Positions 20,898 through 35,252 of a stretch of 35,252 nucleotides of DNA are shown piece by piece. Numbering within the stretch: position 1 is the stretch's first letter; every line of letters begins with the position of its first letter. Origin of the DNA: a virus; IMG/VR virus record IMGVR_UViG_3300042890_001861, positions 1 to 35,252 of that record. One strand, written 5' to 3'. The position numbers and the translations under genes were made by a program. The notes beneath the pieces were generated by a model. That model searched no databases. It worked only from the letters and a program-made list of their open reading frames with translations, and was not told where the DNA came from.

Positions 20898-21261
20898 TTG
20901 GATTGACTATTTCAACTGTAATATTTGAGTTGGTATTGGTATTGGTATTATCGCTTTCAACATACTGCATTGACAACTTCTTTAATTCCTCTGGCGTTGC
21001 AATCAATTTCATCAAAGCCATCTGCAAAGCTGGAGCGTTACTCGTGTACCATTTTGAACGCATTGAAACCTTTAATGATACCCTGTTTGTTTCTAACAAT
21101 TCTTTTAGCTCGTTAAGTTCGTTAGAATCAACTTGAAAGAAATCATAAAAAGTAGGTTTTGAGCAAGGTAAAAAAGCAATAATATCATCCACAAAAAACA
21201 ATTTATGTTTTACTATTACTTCCTTTGCCTGCTCAAATATTTTATTCCTGTCGTATGCCAT
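20878..21261 (-). CDS. terS: Terminase small subunit
   Basis: The 127-aa protein is encoded directly upstream of terL (20-nt overlap). It has a helix-turn-helix-like N-terminus (DDIIAFLPCSKPTFYDFF, residues ~25-43) followed by long helices (LNELKELLETNRVSLKVSMR), as expected for a packaging-site recognition subunit. The C-terminus is polar and contains an Asn-Thr repeat (NTNTNTNS) encoded by a hexanucleotide repeat near 20930-20950. It overlaps the methyltransferase gene by 20 nt. Confidence 0.82.
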   Translation of the reverse strand: MAYDRNKIFEQAKEVIVKHKLFFVDDIIAFLPCSKPTFYDFFQVDSNELNELKELLETNRVSLKVSMRSKWYTSNAPALQMALMKLIATPEELKKLSMQYVESDNTNTNTNSNITVEIVNPNEDTSD

Positions 21262-22450
21262 TGCGTTTTATTTCTAGTGTTGGATCTAGTTTCTTCATTC
21301 GGTCGATTATAACTTGGCAGTATTTTGGATCTAATTCCATTCCGTAACATTTGCGTTTAAGTTGATGTGATGCTACCATTGTTGAACCGCTACCTAAAAA
21401 TAAATCAAGTATTAAATTGTTTTCTTTTGAACTAACCTTTTGATAAAAACTACAAATCTCAATAGTTTTTTGTGTTGGGTGAATTGATTTAGCGTTATGT
21501 TCAGTTGATTTAATTTCATTTAATGCTAAATAAGTATCAAGAAATCCATCGCCATTATATCTGCTATCATTCTTTGTGCTTTCTGAAACTTCTAATATCC
21601 CACTATTAAAACCTTTCTTGCCTTTATTAGAAAAATAACATACTTCATAATTATTTTTAAAATATCCGCTTGGACTTGGTTTATTTTCGTGTGTTATTCT
21701 TTGAATTAATATATTAGTTTGTTTAAAATATTCTTTTATTTTTGAAGCACATTCTGTTATAAATTGTATTCCAAAGTAAATATAAATATGACTATCTTCT
21801 TTTGAGAATAATTCAATATTTGGTAAGCACTCATTAAACACTTCTAAATCTTCATCTCCTAAAATACTTCCGTTTGTGTTTTTAATTGCTACACCATAAG
21901 GTGGGTCAGTAAATACCATATCAGCCTTTTGACCATCCATCAACTTTGCAACCGTATCACTGCAAGTACTATCCCCACAAAGTAACCTATGCTCTCCAAT
22001 TTCAAACAAGTCACCTAAAACAATATCCGTTTCAATCCCGCCTTCTGGCACTTCAAAATCATCTTCTTCTGCTTCGAGTACTTCTGTATTAAAATCAATC
22101 GGCAAATCTAATCCCCACGCTTCTAATTGGTCAGTATCCCACTCATTCGCTAATACATCCCAATCCCACTCGCCACCGCTTGTATTGTCTTTTATTAAAA
22201 ACTCCCTTTGTTGGTCTTCTGTTAAATCGGTTTTGATGATAGGTATTTCTTTTAGACCAGCTTCTTTACAAGCTTTGTATCGCATATTACCACCGAGTAT
22301 AATCATATCTTGATTAACTACAATAGGTCTTATGTTAAGCATCTCTGGAAAGTCTTTAATGCTTTGCACCAATTTTTTAAACTTATCGTCTTTAATAAGT
22401 CTTGGATTGTTTGGGTTTAGTTTAACCTCTGATATTTTTACTTTTTCCAT
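21242..22450 (-). CDS. ParB-like domain fused to DNA N6-adenine/N4-cytosine methyltransferase
   Basis: The 402-aa two-domain protein begins with a ParB/sulfiredoxin-type fold (residues ~1-115; VKLNPNNPRLIKDDKF and LGGNMRYKACKEAGLKEIPI). Residues ~140-402 form a SAM-dependent DNA methyltransferase with catalytic TDPPYG (181-186) first and SAM-binding LDLFLGSGST (348-357) after, the beta-class order. No cognate restriction enzyme is visible, so it is probably an orphan enzyme, for instance protecting phage DNA. It is the first gene of the packaging operon, directly before terS. Confidence 0.9.
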   Translation of the reverse strand: MEKVKISEVKLNPNNPRLIKDDKFKKLVQSIKDFPEMLNIRPIVVNQDMIILGGNMRYKACKEAGLKEIPIIKTDLTEDQQREFLIKDNTSGGEWDWDVLANEWDTDQLEAWGLDLPIDFNTEVLEAEEDDFEVPEGGIETDIVLGDLFEIGEHRLLCGDSTCSDTVAKLMDGQKADMVFTDPPYGVAIKNTNGSILGDEDLEVFNECLPNIELFSKEDSHIYIYFGIQFITECASKIKEYFKQTNILIQRITHENKPSPSGYFKNNYEVCYFSNKGKKGFNSGILEVSESTKNDSRYNGDGFLDTYLALNEIKSTEHNAKSIHPTQKTIEICSFYQKVSSKENNLILDLFLGSGSTMVASHQLKRKCYGMELDPKYCQVIIDRMKKLDPTLEIKRNGIRQE

Positions 22451-28006: not shown

Positions 28007-30352
28007 TTAAAAATCTATATCATCATTACTATTATCTTTTGTATCAAATCCTGAGACTGAAAACTTACGAATACCGCCATTAGTTGTATCTTCTCTTTTC
28101 CATTGCTTATAATCAAAGTACATACCTAACCAACGCCCAAACCAACTTATATTCATAGTTCTTGGCATTTCTCTAACTCCATCCGCATAAGATTGCATTA
28201 TTTCTTTTGTAGTATAAAAGTGATCAGGCTTCCATAAAAATTCATTCTCACAAAAATCGTAAAAATCCTCACAAGTATTTGCAATTAATTTTTTAGTTTT
28301 ACCAGTCTTTAATTCTGAATAAATTAATCCGTGTTTAAAATATTTTTGAATGTTTCCAATCATATAACTAAAAAAACAATTCCATTCATTAACATTCCAA
28401 TCCGTAAAAAATAATTTTCCAAACTCATTTATTGGTTTATATGTTTTTGAATAATGTCTATAAAGTTCTATTTCTACCTTTCTGGCATCGTGTGAATCAC
28501 CAACTCCAGACAAAATATAGTTTGAAGTAAATAATATTTTTGGACTTCTGTCGAATGGTATTTCAATAGGTTGTAAATTCTTTTTGTTTAAAACTAAGTT
28601 ACCAGTTATAATACTAAATAAAGTTTCAAATTTAAAACTACGTTCCATATCATCAAAACAAATAATGTTATCATCTAAGTTAATTGTTTGATATGGAAAC
28701 TGACCTTTATTGTTAAATTCTTTACCATTTAAAGTAACTAACTTTCTGCAATTTTGTAATGCTTTTGATATTAAAGTTTTACCAGTTCGACCGCTTGGAT
28801 TATCATTTAAAGTTTCATCATAAAAAATAATTGCTAATCCTTCATCTTGTTTTTTATAGTTGTTCAGCAAATAACCAATGGAAGTTTCAACTATTAATTT
28901 TCTTTTTTCGTCTTTGTTTGATACATTATTTATAAATGTTTCAAAATCTGTATTATCATTTGTAAATGTAAAATTATGTGGAATTATATTTTTTTGCCAA
29001 ACAAAACCACCTATATTAATATAATCTATTATTTCGGTAGTTTCTTCAGTTACTTTTAAAACTCCATTTTGAAAAAATAAATAAGAATTTTTATCATCAT
29101 CACGAACCATTGCTAAATCTTTTGTAGCTAATTGATTTAAATAATTTTCAGAAAACTTAGTAGTAGATTTAGCAAAAAAATTATAAACATTCATATCTAC
29201 ATCAACAACGTGATTTAAAACAAAATCTTTTATATGAACTTCATTTACTTCATTTATAATATTATTATAAACTTTTACAAATGTAAATTCTTTGTCATTT
29301 AATTGAACTTTATAATATCCTCTATTTTCTAAAAATAACTTAAACTTATAATCGTTTAATGATAGTTTACCATTTTTATCAGTATCCCAGAAAACAAGAA
29401 AATCATCCTCAAAATCAAAATCTATTATATCTTCAATATCTGAATCTCCTAATCCGTCTTTTCGAAATTCCTTCTTTGCTTTCTGAACTCCCTTTTTTAG
29501 TAGTTTTTGTGCCTCCATCACTTTATTATCATCAACTAAAGTTAAAGAATCAAATTCGTGTGTATTCTTGTAACCACTTTTAATAATTGTTTCAAGTTCT
29601 AAATCAGTTAATCCAGATGAATAATAATTTTTAAATAAACTTAGTGCCTCATCATTTTGCAAACCAGCACGATTTAAACCACAAGCTAATTTATAAAGAT
29701 TGTTGTTTCTTTCGCCAGCATTTAAAGTAAATTTTTTATTAAACCACTTTATAATAACATCAACTTTTTTTGATGTATCTGTAATTTGAAAATAAGTTGG
29801 ATAATTGTTTTTTCTTGTAACCTCTGTATATTCTTTTTTTAAAGTCCATACTTTAGAATTTTCATTAATAAATAAATTTGAATCAAAACTTTCATAACAA
29901 ACTCTTGAGATATCTTTTGTTGAAGTATCTAATTTCGTATCAAAAGTTTCGCAAAGTGCTTCATAATATTTTTTATGATTGTTTATTTCTGGTGGAATTT
30001 TTACTATTGCTTTTACTCCATTACCAGAAGGAGAAATAAAAGCCGAATAAATATATTCATTATCTTGTAATGAATCTCTTAAACAAACCGCATCATCTAC
30101 ATCATCAAAATCTAAACAAGCAAACCCAGAATGTTTAATGCAGTTTTTTGCTGACCTATAACTAAACTCACCAGAAAAGCAAACAGATTTTAATTCTGCT
30201 TTAGCTTTATTTCTTGTATGCTTATCTTCAATAGTTCTAACATTATCTATTTTAGATTTGTTTGAACCATCTTTAAAAGATAAAAGTACTTCGTTGATTT
30301 CTTTGTAGAATGGATTTTCTACATCTTTAACGTGTGCAAATATTGTAACCAT
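28007..30352 (-). CDS. Primase-helicase (VirE_N/BT4734-like primase region, SF3 helicase)
   Basis: The 781-aa multi-domain protein has an N-terminal part (~1-175) resembling the BT4734/VirE_N type found in Bacteroidota primases, with SGFACLDFDD (75-84, possible catalytic DxD) and SPSGNGVKAIVKI (107-119). A PriCT-like helical segment lies near residues 205-265 (AGERNNNLYKLACGLNRAGL). The C-terminal SF3 helicase has Walker A NPSGRTGKT (~517-525), Walker B NIICFDDM (~560) and motif C KILFTSNY (~605). It probably makes primers and unwinds DNA at the origin. A structured leader precedes it. Confidence 0.9.
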   Translation of the reverse strand: MVTIFAHVKDVENPFYKEINEVLLSFKDGSNKSKIDNVRTIEDKHTRNKAKAELKSVCFSGEFSYRSAKNCIKHSGFACLDFDDVDDAVCLRDSLQDNEYIYSAFISPSGNGVKAIVKIPPEINNHKKYYEALCETFDTKLDTSTKDISRVCYESFDSNLFINENSKVWTLKKEYTEVTRKNNYPTYFQITDTSKKVDVIIKWFNKKFTLNAGERNNNLYKLACGLNRAGLQNDEALSLFKNYYSSGLTDLELETIIKSGYKNTHEFDSLTLVDDNKVMEAQKLLKKGVQKAKKEFRKDGLGDSDIEDIIDFDFEDDFLVFWDTDKNGKLSLNDYKFKLFLENRGYYKVQLNDKEFTFVKVYNNIINEVNEVHIKDFVLNHVVDVDMNVYNFFAKSTTKFSENYLNQLATKDLAMVRDDDKNSYLFFQNGVLKVTEETTEIIDYINIGGFVWQKNIIPHNFTFTNDNTDFETFINNVSNKDEKRKLIVETSIGYLLNNYKKQDEGLAIIFYDETLNDNPSGRTGKTLISKALQNCRKLVTLNGKEFNNKGQFPYQTINLDDNIICFDDMERSFKFETLFSIITGNLVLNKKNLQPIEIPFDRSPKILFTSNYILSGVGDSHDARKVEIELYRHYSKTYKPINEFGKLFFTDWNVNEWNCFFSYMIGNIQKYFKHGLIYSELKTGKTKKLIANTCEDFYDFCENEFLWKPDHFYTTKEIMQSYADGVREMPRTMNISWFGRWLGMYFDYKQWKREDTTNGGIRKFSVSGFDTKDNSNDDIDF

Positions 30353-30452: not shown

Positions 30453-30697
30453 CAAATAAATTTAATACAAAAAACAAAACACCAAAAAAAAGCATAAAAA
30501 AAAATGCAGTTCCTTTATTTTATAGTAGCTAAGATATAAAAAAACAGCAAAACGGCATTTTTTTACTTTTTAAACAAAAAAATATTTTTTTACATACTTT
30601 TATAAATATATATAAGGATATTACGCTTTTAGTGTGTTTTAGTGTTTTAGTGTATTTTAAATAAAAAAGTAATATAATTATGTAATTTATTACATAA
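30453..30697. other. AT-rich region with iterons and palindromes, candidate replication origin
   Basis: This gene-free stretch between the ssDNA-binding-like gene and the primase-helicase has long A-runs and three direct copies of TTTTAGTG at 30627, 30637 and 30645. A perfect 9-bp inverted repeat, ATTATGTAA (30677-30685) and TTACATAAT (30690-30698), lies beside them. Iterons plus an AT-rich unwinding stretch next to the helicase gene suggest an origin. This is a hypothesis without direct evidence. Confidence 0.45.
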
Positions 30698-30724
30698 TAA
30701 AAAAACCCTCAATTAAGAGGGTTT
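30698..30724 (-). terminator. Intrinsic terminator after the ssDNA-binding-like gene
   Basis: In the minus-strand RNA, AAACCCTC (30724-30717) pairs perfectly with GAGGGTTT (30710-30703) around a 6-nt loop, followed by a run of U. It is 24 bp after the stop codon of the upstream gene and closes the first early operon. Confidence 0.82.
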
Positions 30725-30748: not shown

Positions 30749-31423
30749 TTAAAACTCTAAATCATCTCCATCAGGATCGTTTCCTAAAACTTCATCTTCA
30801 ATAATTGGTTCTGCTTTTACTAAGTAAGCTTTTAAATAAGTTTCTAAAGTGTTGAAGGCTTCGTCTGCCAAATTGGCTTCATCTTCAGAAAGTGATTTAA
30901 AAAATGTAAACTCTGGAGTATTAAATTTAACTGCTCCTTTTTTACCTTCTAAAGCGGTTGCAACTTGTACCCATTCATCAGGTAAACGATTACGTGTTTT
31001 TTGCGTAAACTCACCCCACTTTTGCACTGCTGATCCTTTTAATTGAATGTTTGCAAGTGTACCATCTTCAAGCATAATGTAAATGCTTTTAGTGTAATGC
31101 CCTCCAGCTGCAACAATTTTCTCTTTAATGTCTTTGTATAAACCTTTAGCAATTTCATTGCCTTTAAATGGTTTAACAGTCATAGGTTCTTTAGAAATGA
31201 ATTTCACTTCATTAGAATAGATTGCGCTTGATGTCGAATCATTCCATCCCTTAATGGTATGCAATTCATCTAATACCAAAAACTTAAAAGGCAAAGGAAT
31301 TGAAACGTTTAACGCTGTTTCTTTGTCGTAATAAGAAAAACATTTGTCATTTGATTTCCAGTCGATGAATTTTGTTGCTGGATTTGATTGTGGCGTTTGA
31401 AACGCCTGTCTGCGATTACTCAT
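30749..31423 (-). CDS. Putative single-stranded DNA-binding protein
   Basis: The 224-aa protein ends in an acidic tail with terminal Phe (IIEDEVLGNDPDGDDLEF), the hallmark of phage and bacterial SSBs such as T7 gp2.5, where the tail contacts replication partners. The body (IPLPFKFLVLDELHTIKGWN, then GTLANIQLKGSAVQKWGEF) is beta-rich and could be an OB-fold. The N-terminus is basic (MSNRRQAFQTPQ). It lies just upstream of the primase-helicase in a replication region. Its leader contains a predicted pseudoknot (31441-31473), and a hairpin (31392-31406) lies within codons 6-11. Confidence 0.7.
   Translation of the reverse strand: MSNRRQAFQTPQSNPATKFIDWKSNDKCFSYYDKETALNVSIPLPFKFLVLDELHTIKGWNDSTSSAIYSNEVKFISKEPMTVKPFKGNEIAKGLYKDIKEKIVAAGGHYTKSIYIMLEDGTLANIQLKGSAVQKWGEFTQKTRNRLPDEWVQVATALEGKKGAVKFNTPEFTFFKSLSEDEANLADEAFNTLETYLKAYLVKAEPIIEDEVLGNDPDGDDLEF
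31392..31406 (-). promoter_or_regulatory. Hairpin within the first codons of the putative ssb gene
   Basis: GGCGTT and AACGCC, separated by three bases, form a 6-bp perfect hairpin covering about codons 6-11 (18-32 nt after the A of AUG). Together with the pseudoknot upstream it flanks the otherwise unstructured start site. Confidence 0.4.
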
Positions 31424-31440
31424 AATATTTATTTATTTAT

Positions 31441-31473
31441 GGCTTTCAATGAAGGAGCGAAAGCCTTGCTCCT
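31441..31473 (-). promoter_or_regulatory. Predicted H-type RNA pseudoknot in the putative ssb leader
   Basis: The minus-strand RNA reads, in order, AGGAGC (31473-31468), AA, GGCUUUC (31465-31459), GCUCCU (31458-31453), UCAUU, GAAAGCC (31447-31441). Segments 1 and 3 pair perfectly (6 bp), as do segments 2 and 4 (7 bp). The helices interlock with loops of 2, 0 and 5 nt, the geometry of a compact coaxial pseudoknot. Seventeen nt of only A and U separate it from the AUG at 31423. A similar layout is known for T4 gene 32, whose product represses its own translation. Confidence 0.65.
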
Positions 31474-31500
31474 GTTAATTATGAATTGTAAATATACAAA

Positions 31501-31950
31501 TTAAAAGCTAATCGACAAAGAACTTTTGCGAATATTTTCACTTACTTTAGGAACTTCAACACCTTCTGAATCGTAAATAGTTTCATTTGATTTTTGAGCC
31601 ACTTTTAAAAGCATTTCTCTATCTGTTAATGCTTGTTTAATTTGTTGCCATTTTTCATCCTCTGAATAGTTTGGAGTACTTCCGCCATTGCGATACGTTC
31701 CTTTGATACCGTACGCTTCAAAATTTTCTGCTGGTAAACTATTTTTAAGTTCATCAGTTACAATTGATAATACTTCGTTTACTCTAACCGCCTGTGCGAA
31801 TAATTCCATTTTATCCATTTCGCCACTATCTAATAAGTTAGTAGTAAATTTCTTTGCAGAAAGTTGTAATTCTTTTTTTGAAGGTAAGAAGTTGTTAGTG
31901 TTAACTTCCTGTTCTTGCATTAGCATTAATAAATTTTTTGTTGCTCCCAT
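31501..31950 (-). CDS. Hypothetical protein upstream of the ssDNA-binding-like gene
   Basis: The 149-aa protein (from MGATKNLLMLMQEQEVNTNN) is helical and charged, with a Ser-rich end (IRKSSLSISF). I chose the ATG at 31950 because the upstream alternative is a TTG. I recognise no catalytic motif. Placement directly before the SSB-like gene in the same operon suggests a replication or recombination accessory, which is not testable from sequence alone. Confidence 0.66.
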   Translation of the reverse strand: MGATKNLLMLMQEQEVNTNNFLPSKKELQLSAKKFTTNLLDSGEMDKMELFAQAVRVNEVLSIVTDELKNSLPAENFEAYGIKGTYRNGGSTPNYSEDEKWQQIKQALTDREMLLKVAQKSNETIYDSEGVEVPKVSENIRKSSLSISF

Positions 31951-34340: not shown

Positions 34341-35252
34341 TTAAACTATTTTATAATTGATAATTCGTATATTTTTTACTTTATAATCGCCATTTTTTTC
34401 GACTATTACGTGAGCAAACCCATTTGAGTAATTATTATAAGGAGCATACTCAGGCTCTAATCCACAAAGACAACCCGTTGACCATGTCGTAACAACATTA
34501 CCGCTTAAAGTTTTTTCGGTATGTTCAGACGCTCTGTGATGATGCCCAACGATGCAACTTTCTTTTGCTTTCATAAACAACCCCCTTGCTGGGTTAACTG
34601 GCGGAGCAAAACCACCAAACCACTCGTGACCGTGTAATATTGGAAGTTTGCCAGCTAAAGCCATTTGTTTATCTTTTACTAGCGTAACGCCAAACTCTCT
34701 AAATCTTAAAAGTTGTTCCAATTTAAAATCATCAATTCCTAATAATTCAGGTGCTTTTATCATTAGATAATCTTCATAACGCTTTTCGTGATTTCCGATT
34801 TTGTAATAAATAGGACATTTAAAAAGTTCCTGTAGTTGCTTTAAGAAGTTTCTAACCATTTCCAATTCGCCCGCCATATCCCTCAATCGTCTGTCTTTCG
34901 TAAACCGTGAACATTGATAAAAATCTGCAATGTCGCCATTTAAGTAAATAGCGTTTACATTGTTATCTAAGCCATATTGCAAAGCCAATTCTAGTGCTTT
35001 GTTATCCTGATAAGGGAAATGAATGTCGCTTAAAATTAGAATGTTATTTTGTCCTTTTGGAATAATAAAAGGCTCACATTTTTCGTAATCACTTTCGGGT
35101 AATTCAATTCTCTTTGACATAAATTGCTTTTTAGTTTCTTCTGAGCGTTCGGCTATTCGTGTTACTTTTGAACTATTAACCCCGTTTTCGCCTCTATATC
35201 GTCTAACGTTTCCCCTTACTGATTCCAAACTATTGAAATCTAATTTATGATT
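34341..35252 (-). CDS. Metallophosphoesterase, main part (N-terminus continues at 1-241)
   Basis: This is the C-terminal 304 codons of a 341-aa calcineurin-like phosphoesterase. Metal-binding motifs appear in order: LILSDIHFP (DxH), YLNGDIADF (GDxxD), KIGNHEKR (GNHE), LHGHEWF and IVGHHHRAS (GHxH). All metal ligands expected of the family are present, so it should be active on phosphoesters (nucleotide, RNA or DNA; substrate not determinable here). The frame stays open to base 35252 and joins the ATG at 241 on the circle. It lies in the lysis region, between lysozyme and the Cys-rich gene. Confidence 0.92.
   Translation of the reverse strand, partial: NHKLDFNSLESVRGNVRRYRGENGVNSSKVTRIAERSEETKKQFMSKRIELPESDYEKCEPFIIPKGQNNILILSDIHFPYQDNKALELALQYGLDNNVNAIYLNGDIADFYQCSRFTKDRRLRDMAGELEMVRNFLKQLQELFKCPIYYKIGNHEKRYEDYLMIKAPELLGIDDFKLEQLLRFREFGVTLVKDKQMALAGKLPILHGHEWFGGFAPPVNPARGLFMKAKESCIVGHHHRASEHTEKTLSGNVVTTWSTGCLCGLEPEYAPYNNYSNGFAHVIVEKNGDYKVKNIRIINYKIV
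35126..35252. repeat. Terminal direct repeat, copy 2 (circular assembly overlap)
   Basis: This is identical to bases 1-127. It marks the circle junction and should be removed once to obtain the 35,125-bp genome. Confidence 0.95.

What the first reader, a model, noticed from the sequence alone, without database searches (positions are those of the whole stretch)
31424..31473. T4 gene 32-like pseudoknot in the leader of a putative ssb gene
Six short segments in the leader pair as a compact H-type pseudoknot: AGGAGC with GCUCCU (6 bp) and GGCUUUC with GAAAGCC (7 bp), with loops of 2, 0 and 5 nt. Seventeen A/U-only nucleotides follow, then the AUG. The gene product has an SSB-type acidic tail ending in Phe. 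In T4, gp32 represses its own translation by nucleating on a leader pseudoknot and coating the adjacent unstructured A/U-rich start region. An equivalent autoregulatory leader in a Bacteroidota phage would be new to me. Pairing is seen in the sequence; autoregulation is inferred.
Basis: partly seen in the sequence, partly recalled or inferred. Interest (0 to 1): 0.78.

Follow-up and report, generated by a model that had tools for sequence, protein, structure and literature searches.

The report
Pseudoknot leader of phage SSB gene
In a large group of uncultured Bacteroidota phages, the mRNA for a probable single-strand-DNA-binding protein begins with a small, evolutionarily preserved RNA knot built almost exactly like the one phage T4 uses to switch off its own DNA-binding protein, so the same self-limiting control has probably arisen, or survived, in an unrelated protein family.

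Summary
On the minus strand, 31473-31441 forms an H-type pseudoknot (6 bp and 7 bp stems; loops of 2, 0 and 5 nt). Seventeen A/U bases and the AUG at 31423 follow. It is the strongest pseudoknot in the window, and 0 of 400 shuffles reach it. Among 162 distinct leaders of homologous genes, 133 keep it, in two sequence types. Both stems show heavy compensatory change: 151 double-changed cells against 26±6 shuffled. Tolerated G-U pairs place the function in the sense RNA. In viral contigs it precedes almost only this gene. The protein (PHROG 6706, unnamed) looks like a replicative SSB: a confident model whose best solved matches include T4 and RB69 gp32 (weak, Z 5-6), SSB-like tips such as DDLDF and DDIPF, and a primase next door; no classical SSB was found in 24 related contigs. 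The geometry nearly equals T4's own operator, read with the same scanner. No profile homology to gp32 and no Zn cysteines were found. Most likely: an SSB that represses its own translation, gp32-like. Repression is inferred, not shown.

The parts
31516..31519 (-). TTTG, candidate -33 promoter element, 19 nt from the -7 element
   Evidence: read; Bacteroidota consensus from general knowledge; position not tested in homologs
31489..31496 (-). TATATTTA, candidate -7 element (TAnnTTWR), 15-16 nt upstream of stem 1
   Evidence: 93 of 132 leaders with a knot have TAnnTTWR 15-17 nt upstream of stem 1; background 17% anywhere in 45 nt
31468..31473 (-). stem 1, 5' strand AGGAGC
   Evidence: all 5 core pairs covary
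31466..31467 (-). loop 1, AA, almost invariant
   Evidence: AA in 115 of 120 type I leaders
31459..31465 (-). stem 2, 5' strand GGCTTTC
   Evidence: 5 of 7 pairs have double changes
31453..31458 (-). stem 1, 3' strand GCTCCT (no loop 2)
31448..31452 (-). loop 3, TCATT
31441..31447 (-). stem 2, 3' strand GAAAGCC
31424..31440 (-). unstructured A/U tract AUAAAUAAAUAAAUAUU with three UAAA units, presumed ribosome site and spreading zone for SSB
   Evidence: knot-to-AUG distance mostly 16-19 nt; not exceptional for this genome
30749..31423 (-). ssb-like gene, 224 aa, PHROG 6706, acidic tail ending DDLEF
30696..30724 (-). intrinsic terminator AAACCCTC-TTAATT-GAGGGTTT followed by T run
   Evidence: found after 98 of 114 type I genes, background 1.3%
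28007..30352 (-). BT4734-like primase, next gene downstream
   Evidence: PF08800 present in 24 of 24 related records

Best explanation
This is an autogenous translational operator of a phage single-stranded-DNA-binding protein that works like that of T4 gene 32. A dedicated promoter starts a short leader just upstream of a compact H-type pseudoknot. The pseudoknot sits just outside the expected ribosome footprint, so by itself it should not block initiation (inferred). When SSB exceeds the available ssDNA, a molecule binds the pseudoknot (inferred), probably at its 3' end, where the near-invariant bases lie together: AA of loop 1, the terminal GG:CC pairs of stem 2, and the following AUAAA. 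More SSB then coats the unstructured (UAAA)n tract through the AUG and shuts off initiation (inferred). Shown here: the RNA fold by covariation, its sense-strand nature, its narrow range of distance to the AUG, its near-exclusive association with this gene, and the SSB-like character of the protein from predicted fold, C-tip and gene context. Inferred: RNA binding, cooperativity, repression.
For: Covariation: type I (65 distinct sequences) 98.5% of cells paired, 10 of 12 pairs with double changes, 151 doubly changed cells vs 26±6 shuffled; slid versions pair in only 32-54%. Type II (12 sequences) 100% paired, 24 vs 7. One-sided G-U is tolerated, and one type II pair is G-U in 12/12, so it acts as sense RNA. 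Specificity: stem-1-anchored pattern 75 of 76 hits before this gene, the exception lacking stem 2; stem-1-free type I pattern, all 73 hits with both stems before this gene; geometry scan of 2.9 Mb, 345 of 354 before this gene. Protein: AF2 pLDDT 87, pTM 0.80; RB69/T4 gp32 Z 5.0-5.8 over 143-145 residues, then OB folds; tips DLEF/DLDF/DLPF/DIPF; no classical SSB and no serine recombinase in 24 related records, primase in all. T4 control: scanner recovers UGCC-A-GCUAUGA-0-GGUA-AAGUG-UCAUAGC. T4 operator logic, with UUAAA/UAAA repeats 3' of the pseudoknot, from PMC535899. Tree: the knot labels need 3 changes against 25.8 in shuffles; the group L320-L326 without a knot has ssb right behind another gene. 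Own promoter and terminator in type I.
Against: No binding or repression measured. The A/U tract is shorter than T4's (17 vs 39 nt) and not exceptional for this genome. gp32 fold scores are modest (Z<8) and phiC31 RDF scores higher; no profile homology to gp32. Two phages carry the operator also before unrelated small genes, so it is not strictly ssb-only, though that would fit an SSB regulon too. The leaders counted for covariation were picked for having the fold (this inflates the percentage paired, but does not explain the double changes). The branch uniting types I and II is weak (84/76), so a single origin is likely but not secured.
Confidence: 0.72

Rival explanations
1. The pseudoknot is a constitutive 5'-leader element (mRNA stabiliser or ribosome standby/translation enhancer) that needs no SSB binding; a highly expressed ssb mRNA simply carries it.
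For: In most type I leaders it lies close behind a promoter-like element, so near the mRNA 5' end, and just upstream of the expected ribosome footprint. Bacteroidota start sites are A/U-rich anyway.
Against: A general stabiliser should also be found before other strongly expressed phage genes; scans of viral contigs and of 2.9 Mb of phage DNA find it almost only before ssb. In type II most leaders show no promoter-like element close by, so the knot need not be 5'-terminal. Near-invariant AA, GG:CC and AUAAA suggest a recognised surface.
Confidence: 0.15
2. The knot is the target of another factor: a small-molecule ligand (riboswitch), a host protein, or another phage replication protein.
For: H-type pseudoknots with short A-rich loops are common among riboswitches (general knowledge); no direct evidence here.
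Against: No Rfam match in the window or ten homologs. The motif tracks one protein family over about 42-100% identity, and loop 3 is variable; a ligand pocket normally has more fixed bases (general knowledge).
Confidence: 0.08
3. The protein is not an SSB but a recombination-directionality-like or other DNA-binding protein with an OB-like fold, so the gp32 analogy would fail.
For: phiC31 gp3 RDF is the top solved match (Z 7.1).
Against: No serine recombinase in 24 related records; SSB-like tips; neighbouring primase; no classical SSB elsewhere in these records; gp32 and OB folds fill the following ranks.
Confidence: 0.05
4. The element acts as structured single-stranded DNA (for example at an origin or a recombination site) and not as RNA.
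For: STAXI, another pseudoknot near ssb genes, has been discussed as possible ssDNA (PMC2864571); the element has been duplicated together with inserted genes.
Against: G-U/U-G cells are tolerated on the sense strand only; fixed orientation and distance to the AUG.
Confidence: 0.03

Closest known systems
T4/T2/RB69 gene 32 autogenous translational operator (PMC535899, PMC3014915; NMR structure 2TPK)
   Same: H-type pseudoknot 5' of the start region; stem 2 of 7 bp, no loop 2, short loops 1 and 3 (T4 4/1/7/0/4/5/7; here 6/2/7/0/6/5/7, sister clade 4/2/7/0/4/4-5/7); A/U-rich, UAAA-bearing tract between knot and AUG; the gene encodes a phage SSB with an acidic tail.
   Different: Protein without detectable sequence homology to gp32 and without its Zn cysteines; tract mostly 15-22 nt instead of 39 nt; no Shine-Dalgarno sequence seen; two-nt AA loop 1; kept across a broad clade, whereas a sample of seven other gp32-family leaders shows no strong knot.
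STAXI RNA motif (Weinberg 2010, PMC2864571)
   Same: Pseudoknot found near ssb and other DNA-handling genes.
   Different: STAXI is two or three tandem knots, often with UUCG tetraloops; here a single knot without them, and no Rfam hit.
PHROG 6706 proteins (unknown function), including Mycobacterium phages Gaia gp93 and Courthouse gp132
   Same: Same protein family, next to a primase/polymerase gene, acidic tips ending in Phe.
   Different: The mycobacteriophage genes have no pseudoknot leader that could be seen by eye; they are annotated hypothetical.

Membership tests
T4-gene-32-type autogenous operator | H-type pseudoknot in the leader: short loop 1, 7-bp stem 2, no loop 2 | tested here: met
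   T4 as positive control
T4-gene-32-type autogenous operator | unstructured A/U tract with UAAA/UUAAA units between knot and AUG | tested here: met
   AUAAAUAAAUAAAUAUU, UUAAA in type II; shorter than in T4 and not unusual for this genome
T4-gene-32-type autogenous operator | the gene encodes an ssDNA-binding protein | tested here: inconclusive
   fold, acidic tip and context agree; binding itself not testable here
T4-gene-32-type autogenous operator | the protein binds the knot and represses its own translation | not testable with these tools
   needs purified protein and reporter assays
gp32 protein family | sequence/profile homology to gp32 | tested here: not met
   hhalign of A3 against eight gp32-family sequences: probability 0.1, E 0.42
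gp32 protein family | Zn-binding Cys cluster in the core | tested here: not met
   only one alignment column with Cys in 30% or more of rows
gp32 protein family | gp32-core OB fold | tested here: inconclusive
   RB69 gp32 Z 5.8, T4 gp32 Z 5.5, gp32-Dda complex Z 5.0 over 143-145 residues, below the Z 8 caution line
PHROG 6706 | profile match | tested here: met
   E 6.4e-32 for the window protein; all 59 members of A3 match
Classical SSB (Pfam PF00436) | profile match | tested here: not met
   no Pfam match up to E 0.1 for the window protein
STAXI (Rfam) | covariance-model match; tandem knots with UUCG | tested here: not met
   no Rfam match at gathering threshold; single knot

The most novel reading that the evidence does not exclude
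gp32 and this Bacteroidota phage SSB family descend from one ancient phage SSB and have inherited the pseudoknot circuit, or they converged on the same knot because this geometry is what an SSB of the gp32 fold can nucleate on; and the operator is a portable module that can put other genes under SSB control, as in L410 and L411.
Probability: 0.2. Interest if true: 0.87.

Novelty: new variant of a known kind. Interest (0 to 1): 0.74.

Why it matters
[quoted passage not shown] Here is an apparently independent system with more than a hundred distinct natural leader variants, in a protein family without detectable sequence relation to gp32, in phages of a phylum whose ribosomes make little use of Shine-Dalgarno pairing (general knowledge). 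The variation (two knot types, a clade without a strong knot, two operator duplications) makes a long-open question directly testable: how a protein that binds any single strand picks out its own mRNA. It also gives a likely function to an unnamed phage protein family (PHROG 6706).

Tried and rejected
Rfam at gathering threshold on the window and ten homologous loci: nothing; weak Rfam hits at relaxed E-values look like chance. Nested folding cannot test a pseudoknot. A first AF2 run on close homologs failed (pLDDT 45); a diverse alignment fixed it. Foldseek against PDB alone found nothing below E 0.001. hmmsearch of PDB sequences gave only chance-level hits, among them ORF34p2 (the lactococcal phage p2 SSB, from general knowledge) at E 0.45. 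Profile comparison with gp32 was negative. The A/U tract as independent evidence was rejected because other genes have similar ones. A hairpin GGCGUUUCAAACGCC inside the first codons of the window gene is not general in the homologs looked at. The RDF reading was considered and set aside. A motif scan of Flavobacteriaceae genomes and a search of relatives could not be run. No tRNA near the ssb gene in the window or three homologous loci.

Full report
OBSERVATION. The minus strand of the window at 31473-31441 reads AGGAGC-AA-GGCTTTC-GCTCCT-TCATT-GAAAGCC, followed by 17 A/T-only bases and ATG at 31423. A scan of both strands of the window for such knots puts it first (-26.2 kcal/mol of stacking; next distinct hit -21.8), and none of 400 dinucleotide shuffles of the leader reaches it.

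HOMOLOGOUS LEADERS. The downstream protein found 80 close relatives in IMG/VR, and deeper scans reached 28% identity. Of 162 distinct leaders, 119 carry a type I knot (5-6 bp, AA, 7 bp, 0, 5-6 nt), 13 a type II knot (4 bp, mostly AA, 7 bp, 0, 4-5 nt), and one (L085) an irregular variant read by eye; 29 lack a strong knot. On 65 distinct type I sequences 98.5% of base-pair cells are paired, ten of twelve pairs have changes on both sides, and 151 cells are doubly changed against 26±6 in shuffles; sliding the partner by 1-3 columns drops pairing to 32-54%. Type II gives 100%, and 24 against 7. Stem sequences differ greatly between the two types. These sequences were collected because they fit the fold, which inflates the paired percentage but does not explain the double changes.

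RNA, NOT DNA. Many one-sided changes turn G-C into G-U or U-A into U-G, and one type II pair is G-U in all 12 sequences. On the other strand these would be C.A mismatches. The selected molecule is therefore the sense transcript.

SPECIFICITY. A stem-1-anchored pattern in 2.9 million viral contigs gave 76 hits, 75 of them 48-54 nt before the start of this gene; the exception lacks stem 2. A pattern free of stem 1 gave 73 hits with both stems, all before this gene, and five hits without the fold elsewhere. A geometry scan of 2.9 Mb of held (partly redundant) phage DNA gave 354 knots, 345 before this gene. Of the seven distinct others, five look like chance and two are real: in L410 and L411 the operator is duplicated, one copy before a 79-codon gene (the two genes are unlike each other) and the second, 290 bp on, before ssb. 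L300, a close relative of L411 (92-96% identity around the site), has only one copy. The knot is thus a portable unit.

THE PROTEIN. It belongs to PHROG 6706, function unknown, with no Pfam match. With a diverse alignment AlphaFold2 gives pLDDT 87 and pTM 0.80. Among solved structures the best VIA-align matches are phiC31 RDF (Z 7.1), then RB69 gp32 (5.8), T4 gp32 (5.5) and a gp32 complex (5.0), the gp32 ones over 143-145 residues, then BRCA2, RPA and other OB folds. These Z values are modest. The C-terminal tips are DLEF, DLDF, DLPF, DIPF, as in SSBs (general knowledge). In 24 related records there is no classical SSB and no serine recombinase, and every one has a BT4734-like primase; in the window it lies directly downstream. 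Distant relatives in mycobacteriophages also sit before a primase gene. Together this makes a replicative SSB by far the best reading, though binding is untested.

ARCHITECTURE OF THE UNIT. A promoter-like TAnnTTWR lies 15-17 nt upstream of stem 1 in 93 of 132 leaders with a knot. In type I an intrinsic terminator follows the gene in 98 of 114 cases (background 1.3%), in type II in 2 of 13. The knot ends mostly 16-19 nt before the AUG, about the upstream reach of an initiating ribosome (general knowledge), so it should not itself block initiation. The near-invariant bases (loop 1 AA, the outer G-C pairs of stem 2, AUAAA) come together at the 3' end of the knot, facing the tract. On the protein tree the labels type I, type II and none need three changes, against 25.8 when shuffled. 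The simplest reading is one gain, one change of type and one loss, but the branch joining types I and II has support of only 84/76. The group without a strong knot that the tree places inside type I (L320-L322, and by similarity L323-L326) has its gene a few bases behind another gene.

COMPARISON WITH T4. Read with the same scanner, the T4 gene 32 leader gives UGCC-A-GCUAUGA-0-GGUA-AAGUG-UCAUAGC, 39 nt before AUG; seven other gp32-family leaders show no strong knot. T4's operator is a knot plus UUAAA/UAAA repeats over the ribosome site, both essential for autogenous repression (PMC535899). The Bacteroidota phage leaders have the same parts in the same order with nearly the same dimensions. The protein is not a gp32 family member by profile comparison or by Zn cysteines. 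It looks built to work like the gp32 circuit; it is not shown to be homologous to it.

MECHANISM. Shown: fold, strand, spacing, gene association, predicted protein fold. Inferred: that free SSB nucleates on the knot and spreads over the UAAA tract to block the AUG. Probability 0.72. The A/U tract alone is weak evidence, since other genes of this genome have similar tracts.

NOVELTY. No Rfam family matches, and the literature searches held no report of a pseudoknot-bearing ssb leader outside T4-like phages; the library is open-access only. I therefore file it as a new variant of a known kind: the T4 gene 32 type of control, with an unrelated protein family, a different host phylum and a shorter spreading zone.

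Noticed in passing
L410:1949-2232 and L411 (near 10000, minus strand): Operator duplication: a second knot plus A/U tract precedes a 79-codon gene just upstream of ssb. The two small genes are unlike each other, yet both duplicated units are 290 bp long. L300 is a close relative of L411 without the extra unit.
   Followed up: partly
window 30749-31423 (model of the protein) against PDB 9teh_I: The phiC31 recombination directionality factor gp3 is the closest solved fold to this SSB-like family; RDFs of this type may be related to phage SSB-like OB proteins.
   Followed up: partly
L320-L326, leaders: A clade that the tree places within type I carriers lacks a strong knot; its ssb starts a few bases behind an upstream gene, so control may have shifted to translational coupling.
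   Followed up: partly
window 21242-22450: DNA methylase (N6_N4_Mtase) with a ParB-N-like domain in one protein, just upstream of the terminase genes.
   Followed up: no
window 31368-31411 (minus strand): A hairpin GGCGUUUCAAACGCC within the first codons of ssb; shared by L013 but not by most of the homologs looked at.
   Followed up: partly
window 34341-35228: Calcineurin-like phosphoesterase (Metallophos) at the edge of the window.
   Followed up: no
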